A DNA stretch of 64,000 nt, taken from an uncultured Sulfolobales archaeon. Lineage in GTDB: Archaea > Thermoproteota > Thermoprotei_A > Sulfolobales > NBVN01. Below are positions 26,027 to 37,693 of this stretch, one piece after another. The translations under genes and the position numbers were made by a program. The notes beneath the pieces are model-generated. The model searched no databases. It saw only the letters and a program-made list of their open reading frames with translations, and was not told where the DNA came from. Location of the stretch: NCBI GenBank assembly GCA_938073905.1, contig CALJEN010000010.1, positions 1 through 64,000 of the forward strand, given 5' to 3'. The first letter of the stretch is position 1, and the number at the start of each line of letters is the position of its first letter.

Positions 26027-27382
26027 ATGTCCAGCGTTTTCGGCAGGCTCAGAGACCTGGTCTCGTCCTTCCTGAGGTCTCAGGAGAGCTACGAGGAGGC
26101 CGTCAGCAGCTTCATCAAGGAGCTCCAGAAGGAGATGCTGAGGTCCGACGTCAACGTCAAGGTGGTCACGGAGCTCAGCTCCAGGATCAGGGAGAGGGCC
26201 CTCAAGGAGGAGCCGCCACCGGGCATATTGAGGAAGGAGTGGTTCCTCAAGGTGGTCTACGACGAGATCGCGGAGCTCCTGGGAGGCGATGCGGCCCCAG
26301 ACCCCTCCCCCAAGAGCCTCCCTTGGGTAGTGCTGCTGGTCGGAGTCCAGGGCAGCGGCAAGACCACTACGGCGGGGAAGCTGGCCCTCTACTACAAGAG
26401 GAGGGGGTACAGGGTGGGGCTGACGACGACCGACGTCTACAGGCCGGCCGCCTACGACCAGCTCAAGCAGATAGCGGACTCCATAGGGGTCCCGTTTTAC
26501 GGCGAGAAGCGGGGAGACCCCGTCGAGATAGCGAAGAGGGCTATCAGAGCGCTGCTGAACGACTACCTCTGCGACGTAGTTATAGTGGACACGGCCGGCA
26601 GGCACGGATACGGGAGGGAGGAGGAGCTGCTGAGGGAGATGAGGGAGATCTCGGAGGCCATAAGGCCGTCCGAGGTAGTCCTCGTGATAGACGCATCGAT
26701 GGGTCAGAAGGCGTACGACCTGGCCAGGAGGTTCCACGAGTGGACTCCGGTGGGCTCCATAGTAGTCACCAAGCTCGACGGGACGGCTCGCGGTGGTGGA
26801 GCCCTCTCGGCCGTGGCGGCGACGGGGGCCAGGATAAAGTTCGTGGGAGACGGGGAGAAGCTCGAGGACTTCGAGGTCTTCAGCCCTAGGAGGTTCGCCG
26901 CCAGGATACTCGGCCTGGGGGACATAGAGAGTCTCCTGGACAAGTTCAGGGCCATCGAGGAGAGCGACGAGGTCAGGAAGCGCCTCGAGAGAGCCGTAGC
27001 CCTCGGGAGGATGAGCATGAGGGACGTGTACCACCAGCTCAAGTCGATAAGGAAGCTGGGTCCCCTGAGGAAAGTCCTCGAGCTCGTGCCGGGGTTCTCC
27101 CTGCTGAAGGTGGGTGAGGGCGCGCTCAAGGGGGGCGAGAAGAAGATAGACTCCTGGGTCAGCATAATAGAGTCGATGACTTACGAGGAGCTCGACAACC
27201 CGGGCATGATAGACAAGAGCAGGCTCAGGAGGATAGCCCTGGGCTCCGGCAGGACGGTCGGTGAGGTGAGGGAGCTCCTGAACTACCACGAGCTGCTGAA
27301 CAAGATGATAAGAGACCTGAGGAGGGGCAAGCTCCGGATAAAGGGGCTCGACCTGGATAGGCTAGGTGGAGAAGCTGGCTAG
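26027..27382 (+). CDS. srp54: Signal recognition particle 54 kDa protein
   Basis: A 451-residue SRP54: N domain helices (1-85), GTPase G domain with GVQGSGKTTTAGKLA (G1), DTAGRHGYG (G3) and TKLDGTARGGGAL (G4), and a methionine-containing M domain (about 300-450) with RRIALGSGRTVGEV, the SRP RNA-binding helix. It recognises signal peptides and targets ribosomes to the membrane. The ATG at 26027 is preceded by GAGGTC. Its end overlaps the pus10 start by 17 bases. Confidence 0.96.
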   Translation: MSSVFGRLRDLVSSFLRSQESYEEAVSSFIKELQKEMLRSDVNVKVVTELSSRIRERALKEEPPPGILRKEWFLKVVYDEIAELLGGDAAPDPSPKSLPWVVLLVGVQGSGKTTTAGKLALYYKRRGYRVGLTTTDVYRPAAYDQLKQIADSIGVPFYGEKRGDPVEIAKRAIRALLNDYLCDVVIVDTAGRHGYGREEELLREMREISEAIRPSEVVLVIDASMGQKAYDLARRFHEWTPVGSIVVTKLDGTARGGGALSAVAATGARIKFVGDGEKLEDFEVFSPRRFAARILGLGDIESLLDKFRAIEESDEVRKRLERAVALGRMSMRDVYHQLKSIRKLGPLRKVLELVPGFSLLKVGEGALKGGEKKIDSWVSIIESMTYEELDNPGMIDKSRLRRIALGSGRTVGEVRELLNYHELLNKMIRDLRRGKLRIKGLDLDRLGGEAG

Positions 27383-28661
27383 CGGACTGGGGAGCGTCGG
27401 CAGGGTTCTGGAGGCTGCCCTGAGGGCCCTGCTCAGGTACCCCCTCTGCGATCGCTGCCTGGGCAGGCTCTTCGCTAGGCTCGGCAGAGGGCTGGACAAC
27501 GCGGAGCGCGGGAGGGCCATCAAGACCCTCCTCGCGATGTTCCTCGACGAGCTTCGGCTCAGCGACGAGGAGCTGAGGACCCTGGCGGCGAACGGGGGGT
27601 TGCCACCGGGGAGCGTCCCGGAGCTCGGAGCGGGTGCTCCCGCGGCCTGCTACGTATGCGGTTCGAGGCTCGGCGAGGTGGTCTCGGAGCTGGGGGAGAG
27701 GGCCGCCGGGCTTCTCAGAGAGATGCGCGGCGAAGTGGGCAGCTTCCTCGTCGGGGTCGAGGCGGGCTCGGAGTACGAGAGGAGGGAGCAGGAGGTGATC
27801 GGCTCGCTAGGGCTCGACACGTGGGAGAGCGTGCGCAGGGAGGTCAAGAGGCTGGTCGGCAAGCGGATAGCTGAGGAGCTGTCGATCACCCCCCGCTTCA
27901 GTAACCCGGAGGTCATCGCGCTCGTCGACCTGGAGAGGAGGGAGGTGAGGCTGAGGATCCTCCCGGTGCTGCTAAGGGGTAGGTACGTGAAGGTCGGGAG
28001 GTACATATCCCAGATGCCATGGATCAGGAGGGACGGGGCGAGGAAGTACAAGCTCTCGGTCTACGAGGCGTGCCAGAACATTCTGAAGCTCTTCGGCGGC
28101 AGGAAGCTCGTGATACACGCAGCCGGCCGCGAGGACGCGGACGCCAGGATGCTGGGAGACGGGAGACCCCTGGTCGTGGAGGTCAAGGACCCCAGCCGGC
28201 TACGCCTTCCAGTCCCCAGTCTCCGGTGCGAGAGCCCGGGACCCGTGCCCTGGGTTACAGCGGTGGTGGAGGGCAGAGCCACGAGGGAGTACGTTAGGAC
28301 CATGAAGACGAGGCCCTCCAGGAAGACGTACAGAGTAGTAGTGGTAGTACCGGAGGGAATCACCGAGAAGGACGTCGAGAGGATACTGGGTCTCAGCGGC
28401 ACGGTTGTTTACCAGAGGACTCCCACCAGAGTGCTCGGGAGAAAGAAGGACGCCGTTCGCCGCAGGAGGGTCTACGAGCTGAAGGTCAACCCCATCTCCA
28501 GACACCTTCTGGAGGTCCTCGTTAAGACGGACGGAGGTCTCTACGTTAAGGAGCTCGTCGAGGGGGACGGTGGCAGGACCACCCCCAGCTTCTCCGAGGT
28601 CACCGGGAAGAGCATGAGCGTAGTCATGCTAGACGTGGTGAGAGTTGAGTCACCGGTATGA
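27366..28661 (+). CDS. pus10: tRNA pseudouridine synthase Pus10
   Basis: A 431-residue Pus10, which makes pseudouridine at tRNA positions 54 and 55 in archaea. The N-terminal zinc site is CDRCLGRLF with CYVCGS. A THUMP-like central part follows, and the catalytic domain contains AAGREDADARMLGDGRP, in which the Asp after Glu is the nucleophile region. The C-terminal ELKVNPISRHLLEVLVKTDGGLYVKEL is the usual end of the fold. The GTG start lies inside the srp54 3' end, indicating translational coupling. Confidence 0.92.
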   Translation: MEKLASGLGSVGRVLEAALRALLRYPLCDRCLGRLFARLGRGLDNAERGRAIKTLLAMFLDELRLSDEELRTLAANGGLPPGSVPELGAGAPAACYVCGSRLGEVVSELGERAAGLLREMRGEVGSFLVGVEAGSEYERREQEVIGSLGLDTWESVRREVKRLVGKRIAEELSITPRFSNPEVIALVDLERREVRLRILPVLLRGRYVKVGRYISQMPWIRRDGARKYKLSVYEACQNILKLFGGRKLVIHAAGREDADARMLGDGRPLVVEVKDPSRLRLPVPSLRCESPGPVPWVTAVVEGRATREYVRTMKTRPSRKTYRVVVVVPEGITEKDVERILGLSGTVVYQRTPTRVLGRKKDAVRRRRVYELKVNPISRHLLEVLVKTDGGLYVKELVEGDGGRTTPSFSEVTGKSMSVVMLDVVRVESPV

Positions 28662-28728
28662 TGCCCCCGAGAGCGCCTCGGCTAGACCCGCTCCGCGTAT
28701 CCGCAGAGGAGTCTCGTCCCCGGGGGCA
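28662..28728 (+). repeat. GC-rich stem-loop just after pus10
   Basis: TGCCCCCG (28662-28669) and CGGGGGCA (28721-28728) make a perfect 8-bp stem beginning at the base after the pus10 stop codon, closing a 51-base loop that holds further GC-rich pairs. It could stabilise the mRNA end. No poly-T run follows, so it is not a typical archaeal terminator. Confidence 0.35.
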
Positions 28729-28806
28729 TACGCGCCCGCGGAGCCCCCGGTGTTCCAACGCGCAAAACTATTTAATCTCTCGCACACCGTATAGCTTTCG
28801 GAGGGT

Positions 28807-28895
28807 GCCGCCGTAGCTCAGCCGGGTTAGAGCGCCGGACTCATACGGTCGCCTGGGAGATCCGGAGATCCGGGGTTCGAATCCCCGCGGCGGCA
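28807..28895 (+). tRNA. Elongator tRNA-Met (anticodon CAT) with a 14-base intron
   Basis: Acceptor GCCGCCG (28807-28813) pairs with CGGCGGC (28888-28894); discriminator A; no CCA. The anticodon stem CCGGA/TCCGG encloses CT-CAT-A, then an intron at about 28846-28859 inserted after position 37, the standard archaeal site. The CCGGA stem lacks the G-C triplet of initiators, so this is the elongator tRNA. The EndA gene in the window encodes the enzyme that would cut it. Confidence 0.92.
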
Positions 28896-28992
28896 CTCGG
28901 GATGATTAGAGACTCCAATGATGAGGGATGATGCTGTTCCATCCCTGGATGACCGCCCTGGGGGGGTTTAAAACGCGACAACTCCTACTTAC

Positions 28993-30102
28993 GTGGTGCG
29001 AGCTGTGAACGGGGGCAGCGAGGTAGTGTCGTACCTGATAGTGCTGCTCTTCCTAACCTCGCTACTAATGAACTTCACCGACATACCGCAGAGGATACAG
29101 CTGCAGAGGTTCTCCTCGTTCGTAAGGAGGAAGCTGTACGTTCTGGAGGAGATGGAGTCCGACGCTAGGAGGAAAGCCGTGGCCTACCTGAGCGCGGCGG
29201 GCATTAGGGAGGCCTCGAAAGTCCTCGACGGGTTCGTGGACAACTTCTTCCTCATCAGGCCCGTGGAGATGGAGCCCACGGACATCATAAAGAGGCTCAG
29301 GCACCTCATCAGAACCCGGGAGAGCTCCGTCCGGGACTACGTGAGGAGGGTGCTGGGCACCGCCGAGAGGAGCGTCCAGTACTCGGTCGAGACGGTCCTG
29401 GAGGTGGTGAGCGTGCTGAGGCTTCTCAACAAGCTGGTCAGGCACTACCTAGAGCTGGGGCTCAAGCACAACAACTGGATCCTCGTGATGCAGCTGGCCA
29501 TCCAGATGCCGGAGATACTGGAGATCGCCAAGGCCTACGCGAACTCCGTGGACGCCTTCACCTCGGGCATGCCGATAGGCGACGGCGCGGGCCCCCTGGT
29601 CGCCAAGATGCTGGTAGGGTGGGGAGAGCCTCGGCGGGAGATAGTCGAGGGGACGGACCTCTACGAGGCGGAGGTGGAGGGGAGGAAGGTCTACGCGATC
29701 AAGGCCTCTGGACCCGGATCCAACGTCGGCTGGCCCGGCGAGGCTCTGGAGAAGCTCGTCGGGGAGCTCGGGGGTGCGGTCGATAGGATAATAACTGTCG
29801 ACGCGGCCCTGAAGCTGGAGAGCGAGGAGACGGGCGAGGTGGCCTACGGCACCGGAGCAGCTATCGGCGACCTGGGCCCCGAGAAGATAGCCATAGAGAG
29901 GGTTGCCGGGAACTACTCCATTCCCCTCGACGCGGTGGTGGTGAAGATGAGCGAGGCCGAGGCCTTGGGCCCGCTCACGAAGAAGATCCACGAGGGCGTC
30001 GTGAAGGCCTACGAGGTAGTCCGGAGGACTATCGTGGAGAAGGTAAGAGAGGGAGGCACCGTGATAGTCGTAGGTGTAGGAAACACCGTGGGGATCAGGT
30101 GA
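28993..30102 (+). CDS. DUF1512 membrane-associated archaeal protein
   Basis: A 369-residue protein of the archaeal DUF1512 family. One N-terminal membrane helix (residues 13-27, LIVLLFLTSLLMNF) is followed by a mostly helical region and a C-terminal domain containing PIGDGAGPLVAKMLVG and a Rossmann-like GGTVIVVGVGNTVGIR ending. Function unknown. The GTG start follows a TATA-like GTTTAAAAC at about 28968-28976, so the mRNA is nearly leaderless. Its stop overlaps the start of the next gene (TGATG), which suggests joint work at the membrane. Confidence 0.72.
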   Translation: MVRAVNGGSEVVSYLIVLLFLTSLLMNFTDIPQRIQLQRFSSFVRRKLYVLEEMESDARRKAVAYLSAAGIREASKVLDGFVDNFFLIRPVEMEPTDIIKRLRHLIRTRESSVRDYVRRVLGTAERSVQYSVETVLEVVSVLRLLNKLVRHYLELGLKHNNWILVMQLAIQMPEILEIAKAYANSVDAFTSGMPIGDGAGPLVAKMLVGWGEPRREIVEGTDLYEAEVEGRKVYAIKASGPGSNVGWPGEALEKLVGELGGAVDRIITVDAALKLESEETGEVAYGTGAAIGDLGPEKIAIERVAGNYSIPLDAVVVKMSEAEALGPLTKKIHEGVVKAYEVVRRTIVEKVREGGTVIVVGVGNTVGIR

Positions 30103-30389
30103 TGCTCGTCCAGCAGGTAAACCCTCTGCTGATACTCCTCCTCGCGGCCCTGATAATGCTATCGCTGATGGCTCTAATGCCCTGGCTCTTCTCGCTGTCT
30201 AGGTCTAGGTCTAAGGCGGTGAGAGAGGAGGTCGTGGAGCTCGTCGGCTGCCCGAAGTGCGGTCACGAGTACTCGAGGAAGTACGAAAGGGGGAGCTATG
30301 TAGGCAAAGAGGTCGGAGCCTGTCCCAGGGGCGATGGTCCCCTAGTGGTCAAGGCGATATACGTCGAGAGACACGAGGGCCCGGAGTGA
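30102..30389 (+). CDS. Small membrane protein with zinc-ribbon half
   Basis: A 95-residue protein whose first 30 residues form one membrane helix, followed by a basic stretch (SRSRSKA) and a cytoplasmic part with CPKCGHEYSRKY and a single later Cys (GACPRGDG). The pair CxxC...C suggests a degenerate zinc ribbon. The ATG at 30102 overlaps the TGA of the DUF1512 gene, so the two are coupled. No family recognised. Confidence 0.6.
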   Translation: MLVQQVNPLLILLLAALIMLSLMALMPWLFSLSRSRSKAVREEVVELVGCPKCGHEYSRKYERGSYVGKEVGACPRGDGPLVVKAIYVERHEGPE

Positions 30390-30390
30390 T

Positions 30391-30451
30391 TGGTAGCCGG
30401 GCGGGGATTCGAACCCCGGTCACGGGGGTTCTCCCGCTCGGCCACCGCCCC
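30391..30451 (-). tRNA. 61-nt tRNA-like element: split-tRNA 3' half or chimeric relic
   Basis: The 3' part is a normal tRNA 3' half: anticodon-stem strand CCCCC, T arm CGGGG-TTCGAAT-CCCCG, acceptor strand CCCGGCT, discriminator A and encoded CCA, as in crenarchaeal tRNA-Gln. The 5' part (GGGGCGG-TG-GCCGAGCGGG) cannot pair with that acceptor and resembles the 5' end of a Ser/Leu-type tRNA. No complete D arm or anticodon stem exists. A TATA (GCTTATAAGC, 30473-30482) is spaced to start transcription at about 30452, so it is probably expressed. Either the 5' part is the pairing leader of a trans-spliced 3' half, or the gene is a fusion after deletion. Confidence 0.45.
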
Positions 30452-30521
30452 TTTGTTAGGGAGGGCTAGCCTGCTTATAAGCTTTTCAGCTAAGCCCCTT
30501 CTCTTCCATCGAGAAGTTGAT

Positions 30522-30531
30522 TGCTTATATA
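30522..30531 (+). promoter_or_regulatory. TATA box of rpo8
   Basis: GCTTATATAC predicts transcription start near 30552, 13 bases before the rpo8 ATG; that short leader contains the ribosome site GAGGAGG. Confidence 0.5.
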
Positions 30532-30564
30532 CTCAAGCAGATCCGTATCTAATGTTGAGGAGGC

Positions 30565-31008
30565 ATGGACTTCCAAGAGCGGAGCGCGGTGGCCTCGCCA
30601 GGCAACGGCGGGGAGGCGGGCCGGTCGCGGGGGTTCCTAGAGGCAAGGGGCAAAGTGGTCGAGGTGGTGAAGTCCATGATACCCGGTGTTACCGTGTACA
30701 GGGTCGAGTGTGGGGACTTGAGGGTGAGGTTCGATGCCAACAACAAGCTCCTGAGGCTCGAGCCCGGAGACGAGGTGACGATAACGGTGAGCGGGGACCC
30801 TCCTCCTTACAGAAAGGGCGTGGACTACGTGGCGTGGGGCTACGTCCTGAGTCTGAAGCGTGGCGATGCATCCCACAAGATGGTCATGTCGCTCTGGGGC
30901 TACATAGTGATAGTGGAGACGGAGAGGCAGGAGCTGCTCTCCGGGTTCGACTTCATGGACAAGGTATACTTCAAGGTGTCCCGGGCAGAAGCTCCAGCAG
31001 GTACATAG
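30565..31008 (+). CDS. rpo8: DNA-directed RNA polymerase subunit Rpo8 (RpoG)
   Basis: A 147-residue protein. After a 25-residue variable N-terminus it follows the crenarchaeal Rpo8 pattern: VYRVECGDLRVRFD, LEPGDEVTITVSG, YRKGVDYVAWGYVLSLKR, MVMSLWGYIVIVE and the closing FMDKVYFKVS. Rpo8 is the archaeal counterpart of eukaryotic Rpb8 and is restricted to crenarchaeal-type lineages, so it supports the taxonomic placement. The ATG has GAGGAGG upstream. Its 3' end overlaps the convergent methyltransferase gene by 38 bases. Confidence 0.85.
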   Translation: MDFQERSAVASPGNGGEAGRSRGFLEARGKVVEVVKSMIPGVTVYRVECGDLRVRFDANNKLLRLEPGDEVTITVSGDPPPYRKGVDYVAWGYVLSLKRGDASHKMVMSLWGYIVIVETERQELLSGFDFMDKVYFKVSRAEAPAGT

Positions 31009-31948
31009 CTATAGCGCTCGAGAGCGCCGGTGGGACGGACTCGCCGACCTGGTTGTACTGCTCGTCCCTGCCTCCCAGGAAGACGTGATCGTCGGGGTAG
31101 CTCATGAGCCTTGCCTGCTCTCTGACCGTGAGCAGCCTCGGCTCGTAGGGGTGCACGAACCTCGACGAGCCCAAGACGGTCGGGGCCTCCCTGCGCGGGT
31201 CGAGCCTTATCAAGTTCGGGTAAAGCCTTCCCCCGTAGCCCCTGTACTTCACCAGCGCAGTCCCGAACCTCAGTCTCGCGACCCTCCTGAGTCTCCTGAG
31301 GCTCATCGAGGGGGGAGGGTCGTGGTTCGGTATAGCGGGATCCCGGGACGGGCTAGGCAGGTCTCCTATAGCGTCCCACACGGTCCTCCTCGGACCCCTC
31401 CTCGGCGGGTCTATCCTCACGTTGGACACGAAGACGCGAGTCCTCCTAGACGGGTTCCCGAACTCCTCGGCTCTCAAGACGTTGAAGAACAGCGTCCCGT
31501 ACCCCGCTCTGGCGAACTCCGTCCTCAGAGCCTGCTTCAGCTCCCCCTCCAGTATGCCCGGCACGTTCTCCAGCACGAAGATCCTCGGCTTCGCGCACTC
31601 GACTATCCTGACGTACTCTAGGACGAGGGACCCCACGGGGTCCGAGTAGAGCCTATCGAGAGGCTCCCGGAGCCTCCGAGGGTTGGCCGCCGTGAAGGGC
31701 TCGCAGGGCGGCGACCCTATGACCACGTCCACAGTCCTCCTGCCGGCGAGGTAGAGGACGTCGTCGCAGGACACGTCCCTTATGTCCTCGTTGAGGACGG
31801 AGGTGCCGGGGAAGTTGGCGCTGAAGGTCTTGGCTGCCGACTCGTCGTTGTCTATGGCCAGGAGCACTCTGAAGCCCGAGTCTCTAAAGCCCCGGGAGAA
31901 CCCGCCCGCTCCCGAGAACAGGTCAATCAGATAGGGACCTCCGCTCAT
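30971..31948 (-). CDS. DNA (cytosine-5) methyltransferase, orphan
   Basis: A 325-residue C5 methyltransferase with motif [11 protein letters not shown], motif IV GSPPCEPFT (catalytic C82), motif VI LENVPG, motif VIII RRTRVFVSN and motif X QVGESVPP. The target-recognition segment between VIII and IX is short (about 60 residues). No restriction endonuclease or specificity gene is nearby. It is the third gene of a run with Trm56 and TFE, overlapping TFE by 26 bases, so it is expressed with transcription and tRNA-modification genes. It may act as a housekeeping methylase; target unknown. Confidence 0.88.
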   Translation of the reverse strand: MSGGPYLIDLFSGAGGFSRGFRDSGFRVLLAIDNDESAAKTFSANFPGTSVLNEDIRDVSCDDVLYLAGRRTVDVVIGSPPCEPFTAANPRRLREPLDRLYSDPVGSLVLEYVRIVECAKPRIFVLENVPGILEGELKQALRTEFARAGYGTLFFNVLRAEEFGNPSRRTRVFVSNVRIDPPRRGPRRTVWDAIGDLPSPSRDPAIPNHDPPPSMSLRRLRRVARLRFGTALVKYRGYGGRLYPNLIRLDPRREAPTVLGSSRFVHPYEPRLLTVREQARLMSYPDDHVFLGGRDEQYNQVGESVPPALSSAIAMYLLELLPGTP

Positions 31949-32450
31949 TCTCTACCTCTTTTCCCAGCTTCTCGACGAGCCTCCTCAGGGGCTCTATGTA
32001 GGGGTTCCTGTCCTCCTGGACGAGGAGGGAGGAGCACTTGGGGCACCTGAAGTCCAGCTCCACTGCCTCGTCGAAGGACAGCCTAATGCCGTCGTTCAGG
32101 CAGACGAAGAACAGGGCGTACATCTCGTGGTCCAGCCTCGCCTTGAGCTTCTCCAGGGTCATCCTCTTCCTGTTGAGGAGGGCCTGGTTTATCCCGTAGG
32201 AGTTCACGAACCAGTAGTAGATGAACCTGCCGTCCTCGGGCGACTGGACCCTCTTGTAGATCACCATACCCAGGTCGTTGAGCTCGTAGAGAACCCTCCT
32301 CACGGACTGCTCGTCGAGACCCGTCTTGGCTATGATGTCGCTGTAGCTGAGCTCCTTATCGCTATCGAGGAGGACGCGGAACACCTTCACGCCCTCCTCT
32401 CCCAGGTAGCCCTCGATGAACCTCAGCAGGTCCCTAAGGTTGCCGCTCAC
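31923..32450 (-). CDS. tfe: Transcription initiation factor TFE (alpha)
   Basis: A 175-residue TFE. The N-terminal winged helix (1-95) contains [22 protein letters not shown]; a coiled linker follows, then a zinc-ribbon region with FVCLNDG and [10 protein letters not shown]. Only three cysteines (117, 136, 139) are present where four are usual, so metal binding may be altered. TFE helps open the promoter with TBP, TFB and RNA polymerase. The gene overlaps trm56 by 17 bases upstream and the methyltransferase by 26 bases downstream. Confidence 0.88.
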
Positions 32451-32979
32451 GCACTACCACCCTCTTGCCTCTCGGGCAGGGCTCCACGTATATTTTCGCA
32501 TCGGGGTAGATAAGTCTTAGCTCCTTTCCGCCGTAGAGCCTGTCCAGGAATATGGCCAGGGCAGCCACCTCGGAGTGCGGCTGGTGACCTACGGCCACGT
32601 TGTAGTCCGCGAGCTCGTAGTATACTCGGGGGACTTTCGCGGCGCCAACTACAACCAAGATGTCCTTGCCGGACGCCCTGATCTCGTCTATCAGGTCATC
32701 GATGTGGAGACCGTACATGGTGAGGTGGACGACCAGTCCGCCCGACTCCCTCCACTTCCTCACGTACTCCAGCGGGTCGACCCCGTCCACGACCACGAAG
32801 TCTCTGCGACCCCAGGTCTCGCACACCCTCCTGAGGCTCTCGACCACGCTCTCGTCCTTGGTGTCCGCTATGGCGATCCCTGTGGCGCCGAAGGCCCTCG
32901 CCACGAGCCCGACGTGCGTCGTGACCCTCCTGTCCCTTTGGACCCTATGGCCCAGCCTGAGCACCACTACTCGGACCAT
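32434..32979 (-). CDS. trm56: tRNA (cytidine-56-2'-O)-methyltransferase Trm56
   Basis: A 181-residue SPOUT methyltransferase found in archaea, which methylates the ribose of C56 in the T loop. The N-terminal [33 protein letters not shown] and the knot region VVVGAAKVP ... [19 protein letters not shown] are diagnostic. It is first of the three-gene run with TFE and the C5 methyltransferase. A TATA-like GCTCCCGTCC region gives no clear promoter; the start is GTG or ATG at 32979 (MVRVVVL). Confidence 0.93.
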
Positions 32980-33094
32980 CGAGCACGATATCGGGACGGG
33001 AGCTTATTTCTCGTACGCACCTCGCGCGCAGCGCGAGCAGAACCCTCTCCGGTACCGAGAGCTGAAGAGCGCGCGGCGGCCGTGGAGCAGAGGT

Positions 33095-33657
33095 CTACGG
33101 CTTAAGCCATCTCAACACTACGTAGCTCACCTCCCTCCTCCTCTCGTCGGGTATGGCCAGCAGCAGAGTCTTCCTGACGCTGTGCGATATCCTCCCCCAG
33201 CCGACTATGTCGCCCGGGTCGAGCGGCTGGTCTCTCGCGACCAGCTTCACCAGGAACGGAGCGTGCTCGAGGCCCGGCCTCGTCCTGTAGACGGCGAAGT
33301 CCGCCCCGTACTTGAGGGCCGACCTCACGACGAACCCCTGGGACCTCATGTCCTCGTACACCGTGTAGAGCTCCTCGAAGTTGCCGAAGACTCTACCGAC
33401 CACCTCGAGGAGCTCCTGCTCGCTCAGCTCCCTGTCTCCGGAAAACACCTTCAGGATGCCCTTTCTGAAGAGGAACACCGCCTCCAGCAGGGAGAGCTCC
33501 AGGGGCACCTCTATGTTCGTGTCCTTGGGCTTCCTCACCCCGATGGGCTTACCGTAGAACCCGTGGGCGAAGAGGCACCTGGCCTTCTCTGGGTCGAAGA
33601 CTACGACCTTGGAGCCGGCCAGGTACCCGAGAGCGGGGGCGCAGGACTTGAGCTCAC
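33095..33657 (-). CDS. endA: tRNA-splicing endonuclease EndA, with an apparent N-terminal frameshift
   Basis: The open part (GTG 33538 to 33095) holds the catalytic domain: YGADFAVYR (Tyr), LEHAPFLVKL (His) and SVRKTLLLAI (Lys). Upstream, in the same frame but without any start codon, 35 more codons read like EndA (AGSKVVVFDPEKARCLF, HGFYGKPIGVRKPK). A GTG at 33657 overlapping the previous stop (GTGA) lies in another frame. One extra base in the G5 run at 33635-33639 would join them into a normal ~187-residue protein. EndA removes tRNA introns such as those in the Met and Val genes here, so a real null is unlikely. Confidence 0.82.
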
Positions 33658-34310
33658 TTAAATGAGGAGAGGAACCAGATATAGGTCGCCACCCTCTTGG
33701 CTATATCGGCCGCGTCCTCGAGCTTGTCCAGGGCCTCCTTGAGTATGGGCGCGCCGGTGAAGTCTCCCGACATCCTCAAGCACTCGAGCCCACCCTCCCT
33801 GTAGAGCTCGTCGATAGAGTCCTCTGTCTTCAGGGCCTCGGAGAACGCCTCCTTGACGACCTTGTCGTTGCCCACGTTCCTGGCCATGTCTCCCAGCAAG
33901 TCCACGAGCGTTACCAGCCTCCTAGATACCTCACCGATTATCACGTAGACCCTATCCGGTATCCTGCCCCCGAGTCTGTTCACCAGGTAGAGCCTGTAAG
34001 CTGCGGCCTCGAGGTCTTCGGCTATCCTCAGGGTCTCGTCTATGACCACGATGTAGAGCTCGCGCGACGAGACGTACTCGGACACCTTGATGAAGTACTC
34101 CATGAGGATCATGGTCGAGTCCTCGACGCTGTTCTTCAGCTTCCTGACCCTCTCGTACCTCTTCTCGACGAGCGCGCTCTGCGTAAGGTCGGCCTCCTTC
34201 ACCATGCTGTTCAGCTCCCGGGCCTCGTCGGACACGAGCCTGTAGATGGCTATGAGTTGCTCCACTATATTGGACTCTGCCAGGCTGACCTCCGCGCTCG
34301 GGTAGCTCAC
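33654..34310 (-). CDS. DUF47 family PhoU-like protein
   Basis: A 218-residue all-helical protein with the charge pattern of DUF47/PhoU-related regulators (VEKRYERVRKLKNSVEDS, EDSIDELYREGGLECL, KLEDAADIAKRVATYIW). Such proteins bind metal clusters and often accompany low-affinity phosphate transporters (Pit); no transporter is adjacent here. Its stop overlaps the presumed endA start, suggesting one transcript. It is not closely related to the decayed phoU at 11279. Confidence 0.75.
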   Translation of the reverse strand: MSYPSAEVSLAESNIVEQLIAIYRLVSDEARELNSMVKEADLTQSALVEKRYERVRKLKNSVEDSTMILMEYFIKVSEYVSSRELYIVVIDETLRIAEDLEAAAYRLYLVNRLGGRIPDRVYVIIGEVSRRLVTLVDLLGDMARNVGNDKVVKEAFSEALKTEDSIDELYREGGLECLRMSGDFTGAPILKEALDKLEDAADIAKRVATYIWFLSSFK

Positions 34311-34466
34311 TTAACTCTCCCAAGAGTGTGTCCTGGAAGTACTTAATAAGCGTGTCTCCAGCTCGCGGCACGGAAGCGGCGATGCGCGGCAGCCGAGAGC
34401 TACGGGCCGGCCGGAGCTGAACCTTCAAAGCTTTATTGCCTCCCCCCGCCTGTAGCTGGGACGAGA

Positions 34467-35474
34467 ATGGAACTCTCGGAGCGAGTCGCGAGCTTCGCAA
34501 GCTCCGTCGGAGCCCTGACCTACAGGAGGATCGAGGAGCTGGTATCGGGCCGGCCGGCGGAGCTCTACGAGGCGTCCATGCATCTGGTTAGGGCGGGCGG
34601 CAAGAGGCTGAGGCCCCTCCTGGTGGTCCTCTCGTCCAGGATGTACGGGCTATCCCCGGAGGTCTCGTCATGGGCCGCGGCGGCCGTCGAGATACTCCAC
34701 AACTTCACGCTCGTCCACGACGACATAATAGACAGGGACGACTTCAGGAGGGGGGTGCCGACAGTCCACAAGGTGTGGGGCGAGGGGCTAGCGATAGTGG
34801 CAGGAGACCTGCTCTTCGCGAAGTCCTACGAGGCCCTCCTGAAGCTGCTTGACTACGGTGTGAGCCACGAGAGGGTCGCCTCGGCCATCAGGGAGCTGAC
34901 CTGGGCCGCCGTGACGGTGGCCGAGGGACAGGCCATGGACATACTGTTCGTCTCCCGGGAGAGGGTCGCGGTGGAGGAGTACATAGAGATGGTCAGGAAG
35001 AAGACCGCGGGGCTCTTCAAGTCGTCGATCCTGATAGGCTCGATCATCGCCGGGGCCCCCGAGGAGGACCTGGTAAAGCTCTCCGAGTTCGCCACGGACG
35101 TGGGCATAGCGTTCCAGATAAGGGACGACGAGCTGGGGCTCGTGGCGGACGAGAAGGTCTTGGGCAAGCCCAAGTACAGCGACCTCAGGGAGGGCAAGAA
35201 GACCCTGCTCGTGCTCTACGCCCTCGAGAGGGCGGACGAGAGGCAGAGGAGGAAGATACTGAGCTCCCTCGGCAGACCGGGAGCCACGCGGGAGGAGCTC
35301 GAGGAGGTGGCCAAGACTATAGCCGAGCTAGGGGCTCTCGAGTACAGCAACAAGCTGGCCGAGGAGTTCGTGAGGAGGGGCATAGAGGCTCTCTACTCCA
35401 CCAACCCCAGAGACCCGGACTCCAGGGAGATGCTGAAGGAGCTGGCCTACTACGTGACCAGGAGACTCTACTAG
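34467..35474 (+). CDS. Geranylgeranyl diphosphate synthase (polyprenyl synthetase)
   Basis: A 335-residue short-chain prenyl synthase. GGKRLRPLLVVL binds the homoallylic substrate; the first Asp motif is LVHDDIIDRDD (about 90-100) and the second QIRDDELGL. It builds the C20 chain for archaeal lipids, the donor used by the DGGGP synthase at 17759. The ATG at 34467 lies about 40 bases after a TATA-like CTTTATTGCC. A hypothetical protein and GltX follow closely in the same direction. Confidence 0.9.
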   Translation: MELSERVASFASSVGALTYRRIEELVSGRPAELYEASMHLVRAGGKRLRPLLVVLSSRMYGLSPEVSSWAAAAVEILHNFTLVHDDIIDRDDFRRGVPTVHKVWGEGLAIVAGDLLFAKSYEALLKLLDYGVSHERVASAIRELTWAAVTVAEGQAMDILFVSRERVAVEEYIEMVRKKTAGLFKSSILIGSIIAGAPEEDLVKLSEFATDVGIAFQIRDDELGLVADEKVLGKPKYSDLREGKKTLLVLYALERADERQRRKILSSLGRPGATREELEEVAKTIAELGALEYSNKLAEEFVRRGIEALYSTNPRDPDSREMLKELAYYVTRRLY

Positions 35475-35487
35475 CGGTGCGCCCTTC

Positions 35488-35943
35488 TTGTCGCGAAGGC
35501 TCGGAGAAGCCACGGCCAAGGTTCTGAGAGACCTCGAGGAGATAGTGAAGTACTACAGGCCCACGGAGTGCTACCGGGGAGGGGCTAGGGTGGAGTGCTA
35601 CGAGCTGGCCCTGGGACTGATCGAGAGGGGGTACGCCGAGGACGACGTCACCGTCTGCAACAGGAGGAAGGACGTCTGCCTGAGCCTGGCTAGAGGCTCT
35701 AGGGTCGCCGTGGTGGAGGTCTCGGCCACCGAGGTGTACCCCCAGGTGGACTCCGGAGACCGCGTGGGGGTCGCCGACCTCCTGGCCTACGGGATCACTA
35801 GCAAGGGCGAGCTCAGGAGCGTGAGGTCGGAGGTGGAGGGGTACGTCCTGCTGATACACGAGGACCCCGCGTCCAGGCCCCTAAAGTGCTACATAGTGAT
35901 AGCCAGAGAGGGTGTGGTGGTGGGTGGAGGTCGAGAGGCTTAG
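35488..35943 (+). CDS. Conserved-looking hypothetical protein between GGPP synthase and GltX
   Basis: A 151-residue protein with five cysteines (ECYRGGARVECYE, VTVCNRRKDVCLSLA) and strands such as SRVAVVEVSATEVYP and GYVLLIHEDPASR. The secondary-structure rhythm (helix, then strands with a central EVSATE) recalls small nuclease-like alpha/beta folds, but no catalytic set is clear. The start is TTG at 35488, 13 bases after the upstream stop. Its end overlaps gltX by 32 bases in another frame, so it is probably translated together with it. Confidence 0.5.
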   Translation: MSRRLGEATAKVLRDLEEIVKYYRPTECYRGGARVECYELALGLIERGYAEDDVTVCNRRKDVCLSLARGSRVAVVEVSATEVYPQVDSGDRVGVADLLAYGITSKGELRSVRSEVEGYVLLIHEDPASRPLKCYIVIAREGVVVGGGREA

Positions 35944-37693
35944 AGAGGTAGCTCTGAAGCACGCGCTGAAGAACTCCATAGACCACGGAGGGAGAGCCCT
36001 CGAGAGTGCCGTGCTCAGCAAGGTCTTCGGGGAGCTGCCGGAGCTGAGGAAGCACGCCAGGCAGGTGATCGAGGTGGTGAGGGAGGTGGTGGGGTTCGTT
36101 AACTCGCTCACGCTGGAGGAGCAGACGAGGCTCGCGAGGGAGAGGTACCCGGAGCTCCTCGAGGGGGTCGAGGAGGCCAGACCGGTGGAGAGGGCTCTGC
36201 CGCCCCTGCCCAACGTAGAGAAGTACAGAGTCGTCAGGACCAGGTTCGCGCCGAACCCCGACTTCTACATACACCTGGGAAACGCGAGGCCGGCCCTGCT
36301 CAGCTACGAGTACGCCAGGGAGTACAGGGGGGTCTTCATCCTCAGGTTCGAGGACACCGATCCCAGGATCAAGAGGCCTCTGCCGGAGGCCTACGGTGCA
36401 ATCAAGGAAGACCTGAAGTGGCTCGGGATCTCCTGGGACGAGGAGTACGTCCAGTCGGCGAGAATGGAGCTCTACTACGGGGTCGCCAGGGAGCTCATCG
36501 CCAGGGGCGGAGCGTACGTAGACCTCTGCGGACGCGAGGAGTTCAGGAAGCTCAAGCTCGAGAGGAGGGGGTGCCCCCACAGAGACCAGAGACCCGAGGA
36601 GTCCCTCGAGCTCTTCGACAAGATGCTCTCCGGCCACTTCGGGGAGGGGGAGGCGGTCGTCAGGGTCAAGACGGACCTCGCCCTCAGCGACCCGTCTCTC
36701 ATAGACTGGGTAGCTTTCAGGGTGGTGGACACCTCGAAGCACCCACACCCGCTGACCGGCGACAGGTACGTCGTGTGGCCCACCTACAACTTCGCGGCGG
36801 GGGTAGACGACAGGCTCATGGGGGTCACCCACATACTGAGGGGGAGGGAGCACGCGCTGAACACTCTGAAGCAGCTCTACGTCTACAGAGCCCTCGGGTG
36901 GGAGTACCCAGAGGTGATCAACCTGGGGAGGCTGAGGCTGGAGGGGATGATCCTCAGCAAGAGCAAGATAAAGGAGGTCCTCAGGAGGAGCAGGAGGGCC
37001 GGGACCGACGACCCCAGGTTCGGCACGCTGAGGTCTCTGAGAAGGAGGGGGATACTCCCGGAGGTGGTGAGGGAGATAGTGTTGGAGGTCGGGGTCAAGG
37101 GGACCGACGCGACGATCAGCTGGGAGAACGTAGCGTCGCTGAACAGGAGGAGGGTGGACCCGGTGGCCCCCAGGATCATGGCCGTGTTCGACCCGGTGAG
37201 GGTGGTGATACGGGGAGTGCCCAGAGACCCCTCCCTGAGGACCCTGAGGCTCGACTACCACCCGACCAACGCGTCTCTGGGCTCGAGGACAATCGACCTC
37301 GGCCGGGAGGAGGCTGTCGAACTGTTCGTGAGCAGGGAGGACCTCCACCTGCTGAAGGAGAGAGGGGCACTGAGGCTGATGGAGTTCTGCAACATCTCGC
37401 TCGAGAGCGAGAGCGGCGACCGTGTTGAGACCAGGTTCACCGGAACCGAGCTGGAGATAGCGAGGAAGGCCGGGCTGAAGCTGGTCCAGTGGGTCCCGGT
37501 CAGAGACCACGTCAGGCTGGACGTCCTGAAGCCCGAGGGGCTCGGGCTGAGGACTCTCCGCGGGCTAGCCGAGGCCTCTCTAGTGGGGTTCGGACCCGGG
37601 ACCCTCGTCCAGCTCGTGCGCGTGGGCTTCGTCAAGCTGGAGGACGTTTACGCGAAGGAGAGGAAGGTGAAGGCCGTCTACGCGCACGACTAG
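35912..37693 (+). CDS. gltX: Glutamyl-tRNA synthetase (archaeal type)
   Basis: A 593-residue class I synthetase that charges tRNA-Glu. After a 100-residue archaeal N-terminal helical domain come FAPNPDFYIHLGNARPA (HIGH motif variant) and ILRFEDTDPRIKRPLPEAY; the KMSKS-like loop is MILSKSKI. The C-terminal beta-barrels follow the eukaryote/archaea GlnRS-GluRS pattern (IMAVFDPVRVVIRG). If GlnRS is absent, as in archaea generally, it also misacylates tRNA-Gln for the amidotransferase route; this cannot be tested here. The start may be ATG 35912 or GTG 35924. Confidence 0.94.
   Translation: MWWWVEVERLREVALKHALKNSIDHGGRALESAVLSKVFGELPELRKHARQVIEVVREVVGFVNSLTLEEQTRLARERYPELLEGVEEARPVERALPPLPNVEKYRVVRTRFAPNPDFYIHLGNARPALLSYEYAREYRGVFILRFEDTDPRIKRPLPEAYGAIKEDLKWLGISWDEEYVQSARMELYYGVARELIARGGAYVDLCGREEFRKLKLERRGCPHRDQRPEESLELFDKMLSGHFGEGEAVVRVKTDLALSDPSLIDWVAFRVVDTSKHPHPLTGDRYVVWPTYNFAAGVDDRLMGVTHILRGREHALNTLKQLYVYRALGWEYPEVINLGRLRLEGMILSKSKIKEVLRRSRRAGTDDPRFGTLRSLRRRGILPEVVREIVLEVGVKGTDATISWENVASLNRRRVDPVAPRIMAVFDPVRVVIRGVPRDPSLRTLRLDYHPTNASLGSRTIDLGREEAVELFVSREDLHLLKERGALRLMEFCNISLESESGDRVETRFTGTELEIARKAGLKLVQWVPVRDHVRLDVLKPEGLGLRTLRGLAEASLVGFGPGTLVQLVRVGFVKLEDVYAKERKVKAVYAHD

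What the first reader, a model, noticed from the sequence alone, without database searches (positions are those of the whole stretch)
30391..30482. A promoter-bearing tRNA-like gene with mismatched halves: possible split-tRNA 3' half
The last 38 bases are a perfect tRNA 3' half ending in encoded CCA and close to crenarchaeal tRNA-Gln, but the first ~22 bases cannot pair with it and no anticodon stem or D arm exists. The TATA at 30473-30482 places transcription start exactly at the first base of the element. A GC-rich 5' leader directly before a 3' half is what trans-spliced split tRNAs of some archaea look like. Against this, the leader also looks like the 5' end of a Ser/Leu-type tRNA, so a deletion fusion of two tRNA genes is the rival explanation.
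Basis: partly seen in the sequence, partly recalled or inferred. Interest (0 to 1): 0.72.

Follow-up and report, generated by a model that had tools for sequence, protein, structure and literature searches.

The report
Shared half of split glutamine tRNAs
This stretch encodes only the second half of a glutamine tRNA; two separately encoded first halves, one for each glutamine codon, appear to pair with it and be spliced to it as RNA, and the same kind of split seems to have arisen at least four times in this order of heat-loving archaea.

Summary
Window 30391-30452 (minus strand) is a 38-nt tRNA-Gln 3' exon with encoded CCA behind a 24-nt G/C-rich leader, with a TATA box (30473-30482) at normal tRNA spacing. 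The same genome has two separate 5' halves, identical except at the wobble base: anticodon CUG on contig 3, UUG on contig 9. Each is followed by a trailer perfectly complementary over 15 bp to the leader. Either 5' half with this 3' half builds a textbook bulge-helix-bulge at position 37/38; the joined sequences read as tRNA-Gln(CUG) and tRNA-Gln(UUG). No intact tRNA-Gln was found. All seven genomes of the genus keep this 2:1 set, with compensatory changes in the pairing arms; the other ten genera of the family have the gene in cis. tRNA-Gln is split at the same site in three other families; a one-gene tree needs at least four changes between cis and split. Split tRNAs are known, in Desulfurococcales (Asp, Lys) and, with a shared 3' half, in Nanoarchaeum (Glu). 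A split of both Gln isoacceptors at 37/38 was not found in the open-access literature searched. Transcription and trans-splicing are inferred, not shown.

The parts
30391..30428 (-). tRNA-Gln 3' exon (nucleotide 38 to the encoded CCA), used with both 5' halves
   Evidence: Sequence; the only match with up to 3 mismatches in the genome; joined to either 5' half it is read by ARAGORN as tRNA-Gln
30429..30452 (-). Leader of the 3' half: 15-nt pairing arm GGGGCGGTGGCCGAG (30437-30451), then C-G, GGAG (30431-30434) that forms the 4-bp central helix of the BHB, and AA of the 3' bulge; cleavage expected between 30429 and 30428
   Evidence: 15/15 complementary to the trailers of both 5' halves; compensatory changes across the genus
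30473..30482 (-). TATA box GCTTATAAGC of the 3'-half gene, 20 nt before the leader
   Evidence: 14.6 bits on the tRNA promoter matrix, spacing as in 37 tRNA genes
33095..33538 (-). tRNA splicing endonuclease, catalytic-type subunit (the expected cutting enzyme), 2.6 kb upstream of the 3' half
   Evidence: PF01974 E 9.1e-28 and PF02778 E 3.8e-7; a second PF01974 gene is at G000:C9:71545-71778

Best explanation
The element is the single, shared 3' half of two split tRNA-Gln genes. Three unlinked genes with their own promoters make three short RNAs: 5' half CUG, 5' half UUG and this 3' half. The G/C-rich trailer of either 5' half pairs with the leader of the 3' half (15 bp plus a C-G pair). This closes a tRNA body with a bulge-helix-bulge: bulges GG|A and AA|C around a 4-bp helix CUYU/GGAG. 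The two-subunit tRNA splicing endonuclease then cuts both bulges and the exons are ligated between nucleotides 37 and 38, probably by RtcB, giving mature tRNA-Gln(CUG) and tRNA-Gln(UUG). Shown from sequence: the three genes, promoters, complementarity with covariation, BHB, absence of any intact gene found, presence of the enzymes. Inferred: transcription, trans-pairing, cleavage and ligation.
For: Two 5' halves in the own genome and two in each of the six other genomes of the genus, with one 3' exon each (own genome). The three pieces lie on different contigs of the own genome (C3, C9, C10). All 14 joined sequences of the genus are read as tRNA-Gln with CTG or TTG. All pairs of the BHB model are standard, with 3-nt bulges and a 4-bp central helix. 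The trailer/leader duplex is -37.4 kcal/mol against a shuffled mean of -17.9 and a best of -27.9 in 500. Covariation: CG to UA in 4 of 10 distinct rows at one pair, GC to AU at another; 98% of cells paired against 33-63% when slid. In G003 an extra G in the leader is matched by an extra base in both trailers. Promoters of all three pieces have tRNA-gene quality and spacing. No intact tRNA-Gln among the tRNA hits of the own genome or of the 97% complete G004. Two endonuclease-domain genes and RtcB. In single-contig genomes of other families the halves are far apart: 267 kb in G029, and 46 kb or more in G031.
Against: No RNA data exist here, so expression and joining are unproven. The own genome is 79% complete, so its lack of an intact tRNA-Gln rests partly on the six sister genomes. 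ViennaRNA prefers another fold by about 10 kcal/mol at 37 C (about 3-5 at 80 C); but an ordinary intron-bearing tRNA-Gln of the same family gives the same gap, 11 kcal/mol. The intron arm has one unpaired C in the leader.
Confidence: 0.95

Rival explanations
1. The element is a dead tRNA remnant, such as an attachment-site tRNA 3' fragment left by an integrated element, or a deletion fusion of a Ser/Leu-type tRNA 5' end with a tRNA-Gln 3' end.
For: tRNA 3' fragments next to recombinase genes do occur in this genus: G004:C7:53304 lies directly after what looks like a tyrosine-recombinase C-terminus. The leader GGGGCGGTGGCCGAG looks a little like the 5' end of the genome's Ser tRNAs.
Against: The leader is conserved in seven species with compensatory changes to two distant trailers; it has a top-scoring promoter; no intact tRNA-Gln was found to make it dispensable; no recombinase among the neighbouring proteins scanned.
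Confidence: 0.02
2. The halves are parts of one very long cis intron, or their separation is an assembly artefact.
For: Related genomes do have 5' and 3' exons in cis with gaps of about 97 to 728 nt. The window's genome is a draft.
Against: Seven assemblies agree. In G004 the two 5' halves lie on opposite strands of one contig and the 3' half on another. Single-contig genomes show halves 46 kb to hundreds of kb apart. A single 3' exon cannot be in cis with two unlinked 5' exons.
Confidence: 0.01
3. The pieces are transcribed and paired, but the 3' half mainly works on its own, for example as a tRNA-like regulatory RNA, and trans-splicing is minor.
For: Not excluded, since no RNA data are available.
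Against: No intact tRNA-Gln was found, so both glutamine codons depend on the joined product; conservation follows exactly the exon and pairing arms.
Confidence: 0.02

Closest known systems
[quoted passage not shown]
   Same: Two 5' halves with synonymous anticodons share one 3' half, joined at 37/38 through a G/C-rich duplex and a BHB (PMC3218864 table 1; PMC4033280; PMC4390854).
   Different: Here the amino acid is glutamine, the host is a member of the Thermoproteota (Crenarchaeota), and the set is conserved in all seven sampled species of a genus.
Split tRNA-Gln(UUG) of Nanoarchaeum equitans
   Same: Split tRNA for glutamine.
   Different: Split at 32/33, UUG only, own 3' half (PMC3218864 table 1); here split at 37/38, both CUG and UUG, shared 3' half.
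[quoted passage not shown] split tRNA-Lys(CUU) of Staphylothermus
   Same: Recent splits in Desulfurococcales, two transcripts, BHB; Asp is also split at 37/38 (PMC3218864).
   Different: Different amino acids; halves adjacent (Asp) or about 4.5 kb apart (Lys); one 5' half per 3' half.
Split and tri-split tRNAs of Caldivirga maquilingensis
   Same: Halves shared between synonymous tRNAs (PMC4390854).
   Different: Gly, Glu and Ala; up to three pieces.

Membership tests
Archaeal split (trans-spliced) tRNA | 5' and 3' halves encoded at separate loci | tested here: met
   Own genome: C3, C9 and C10
Archaeal split (trans-spliced) tRNA | Each half has its own promoter | tested here: met
   TATA boxes at 20, 23 and 25 nt, scores 14.6, 13.8 and 10.6 bits; sequence evidence only
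Archaeal split (trans-spliced) tRNA | Complementary G/C-rich trailer and leader | tested here: met
   15-bp perfect duplex, compensatory changes
Archaeal split (trans-spliced) tRNA | Bulge-helix-bulge at the exon junction | tested here: met
   3-nt bulges around a 4-bp helix, all pairs standard
Archaeal split (trans-spliced) tRNA | Joined halves give a complete tRNA of one identity | tested here: met
   ARAGORN: tRNA-Gln ctg or ttg for all 14 combinations
Archaeal split (trans-spliced) tRNA | No intact gene for the same tRNA | tested here: met
   Own genome (79% complete) and G004 (97% complete)
Archaeal split (trans-spliced) tRNA | Two-subunit tRNA splicing endonuclease | tested here: met
   Two genes with PF01974; the alpha-beta assembly is inferred from crenarchaeal biology
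Archaeal split (trans-spliced) tRNA | Halves and mature tRNA detected as RNA | not testable with these tools
   No RNA data
Integration-site (att) tRNA fragment | Adjacent integrase or element with a second copy of the tRNA segment | tested here: not met
   Neighbours are a DUF1512 protein, an unnamed ORF, RNA polymerase subunit G and a C5 methyltransferase; one 3' exon in the genome

The most novel reading that the evidence does not exclude
Position 37/38 of tRNA-Gln is a hotspot of repeated gene splitting in this archaeal order. From intron-bearing ancestors, independent lineages passed through adjacent halves with an internal promoter to fully separated halves, and several converged on an arrangement in which one 3' half serves both glutamine isoacceptors.
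Probability: 0.65. Interest if true: 0.75.

Novelty: new member of a known kind. Interest (0 to 1): 0.62.

Why it matters
Whether split tRNAs are relics of early evolution or late products of genome rearrangement is a long debate that rests on about seven published species. Here one tRNA family in one order shows intronless, intron-bearing, adjacent-half and fully split forms in close relatives, once within a single genus. Shared and private 3' halves also occur. The late origin, its steps and its cost can thus be tested directly. It also means that all glutamine decoding in this genus depends on trans-splicing.

Tried and rejected
Leader as the 5' end of a Ser/Leu tRNA (deletion fusion): rejected, because it is complementary to both 5' trailers and covaries with them. 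Att-site remnant: rejected (promoter, conservation, no recombinase among the neighbouring proteins scanned). The Rfam asX4 match (14.5 bits, gathering score 100) is noise. Unconstrained co-folding as a test of the BHB was not informative: it misfolds an ordinary intron-bearing tRNA-Gln equally. A script that crashed was replaced. Names of single-contig relatives could not be looked up: G031 (1,319,206 bases) and G061 (1,314,639 bases) resemble Fervidicoccus fontis and Desulfurococcus mucosus in size, from memory only.

Full report
WHAT IS THERE. On the minus strand, 30452 to 30391 reads AGGGGCGGTGGCCGAGCGGGAGAA|CCCCCGTGACCGGGGTTCGAATCCCCGCCCGGCTACCA. The 38 nt after the bar are a full tRNA 3' half with encoded CCA. 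ARAGORN finds no tRNA here, and the Rfam tRNA model gives 15.7 bits against a cut-off of 29; the genome's other 37 tRNA hits score at least 38.8. A TATA box GCTTATAAGC at 30473-30482 lies 20 nt before the leader. A matrix trained on the 37 tRNA promoters of this genome puts the box as high as the best of them, and the spacing is within their range of 18-32 nt.

THE PARTNERS. The pattern AGCCGGGTN{0,3}GTCTAGNGG occurs exactly twice in the own genome and twice in each of the six other genomes of the genus. All are tRNA-Gln 5' exons ending in the anticodon loop: AGCCGGGTCGTCTAGCGGCCAAGGATGCGGGGCTCTGG (CUG, G000:C3, first base 30419, minus) and the same with CTTTGG (UUG, G000:C9, first base 107127, minus). 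Both are followed by ACCTCGGCCACCGCCCCC, whose nucleotides 3-17 are the exact complement of the leader arm GGGGCGGTGGCCGAG. Both have TATA boxes, at 23 and 25 nt. The 3' exon occurs once in the own genome, and the element query finds one full match in each genome of the genus.

STRUCTURE. With the mature cloverleaf stems and the arm paired, the junction is a canonical bulge-helix-bulge: GG|A opposite AA|C around C32-U33-Y34-U35 / GGAG, followed by a C-G pair and 15 further pairs with one unpaired C on the leader side; every pair is standard for both anticodons. All 14 joined 76-mers of the genus are read as tRNA-Gln ctg or ttg. Free co-folding prefers another fold, but the same model misfolds an ordinary intron-bearing tRNA-Gln of the same family by as much (11 kcal/mol), so this is not evidence against.

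SELECTION ON THE PAIRING. In the genus alignment (ten distinct rows from six genomes; G002, whose leader has an insertion, was left out) the 15-pair arm has 98.0% standard pairs against 33-63% when slid. It has five cells changed on both sides, at two pairs: CG to UA in four rows and GC to AU in one. None of 500 shuffles reached the covariation score. The shuffle control has a known bias for related sequences, and two pairs is modest; but the length change in G003 (one base added in the leader and in both trailers) points the same way. Over 24 cognate pairs from several families the duplex energy averages -34.7 kcal/mol, against -19.8 for leaders of other genera.

NO INTACT GENE. None of the 37 tRNA hits of the own genome is tRNA-Gln, nor is any hit of the 97% complete sister G004. 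Both glutamine codons would be unread without trans-splicing (inference).

MACHINERY. Two proteins with the tRNA endonuclease domain are encoded, one of them inside the window at 33095-33538, and one RtcB ligase. Two-subunit endonucleases are the type linked with split tRNAs (PMC3218864).

ORIGIN. In the same family, 24 other genomes of ten genera were searched. Every one has 5' exons; wherever the 3' coordinates were also listed, the exons are in cis, with introns at 37/38 or none. The intron ends of the cis genes (GGGGAGAAC and similar) match the end of the window's leader, so the leader looks like a remade intron end. In several of these genera the intact tRNA-Gln(UUG) gene lies near the C5 methyltransferase, and in one genus the intact tRNA-Gln(CUG) gene lies near the DUF1512 protein. 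The window's 3' half has DUF1512 on its downstream side in 7 of 7 species and the methyltransferase on its upstream side in 4 of 7. No such shared neighbours were found for the 5' halves. This suggests, without proof, that the 3' half stayed near ancestral tRNA-Gln sites, perhaps after recombination between the two genes, and that the 5' halves moved.

RECURRENCE. In a sample of 69 genomes of the order, 15 have tRNA-Gln exons at separate loci: the own genome, all six sampled genomes of family f4, all seven of f8, and G029 of f6. Arrangements differ: two 5' halves with one shared 3' half (own genus, f4 genera g23 and g35, f8 genera g18 and g26), CUG split with UUG intact (f4 genus g14), one of two genes split (G029, whose congeners are intact), and two 5' halves with two private 3' halves (G050, where swapped partners pair far worse). 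Leaders of different families are unrelated in sequence. In G061, G085, G035 and in loci L131 and L132 the exons lie in cis with gaps of about 156-190 nt that hold a TATA-like site before the 3' arm, as described for tRNA-Asp of Aeropyrum pernix (PMC3218864). A tree of SRP54 from 26 genomes needs at least four changes between cis and split, also when only well-supported branches are counted. It is a single gene, and changes may be gains or losses; but the own genus and G029 are nested within cis lineages.

NAMES.

LITERATURE. Published split tRNAs are six in N. equitans, six in C. maquilingensis, and Asp or Lys in four Desulfurococcales (PMC3218864, PMC4033280, PMC4390854). The only split tRNA-Gln listed is N. 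equitans UUG at 32/33. Searches of the open-access library found no report of split tRNA-Gln at 37/38 in Crenarchaeota; subscription papers and unpublished annotation were not searched, so this is a limited negative.

VERDICT. A split tRNA with high confidence by sequence; not yet shown as RNA. The class is known; the amino acid with this site, the conserved 2:1 arrangement in a genus and the repeated splitting across an order appear to be new.

Noticed in passing
L098, L099, L100, L101 (genome G050): Both glutamine tRNAs are split with two private 3' halves; cognate duplexes are -30.6 kcal/mol each and swapped ones -21.2 and -6.4, so pairing looks orthogonal.
   Followed up: partly
L114 (G061), L115 (G085), L116 (G035), L131, L132: tRNA-Gln exons in cis with gaps of about 156-190 nt holding a TATA-like site before the 3' arm: candidate adjacent-half split genes or intermediates.
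   Followed up: partly
L111 (G059): tRNA-Gln(UUG) exons in cis 728 nt apart with long complementary arms; no TATA-like site found by the simple scan.
   Followed up: no
L242 (G004:C7:53304): A tRNA 3' fragment directly after the C-terminus of a tyrosine-recombinase-like reading frame, a typical integration scar.
   Followed up: no
L104 (G060): A second tRNA-Gln 3' half whose 5' partner was not found in the draft; the one 5' half found pairs with the other 3' half.
   Followed up: no
L141, L149, L150, L155, L089: tRNA-Gln genes of relatives carry an additional or alternative intron upstream of the anticodon (about 32/33).
   Followed up: no
window 27366-37693: The 3' half sits among RNA-maturation genes: Pus10, a tRNA-Met with intron, Trm56, splicing endonuclease, glutamyl-tRNA synthetase, plus RNA polymerase subunit G and TFE.
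   Followed up: partly
L052 and L059 (G004): The two 5' halves of G004 share an identical stretch of upstream sequence through the promoter, which suggests recent duplication or gene conversion.
   Followed up: no
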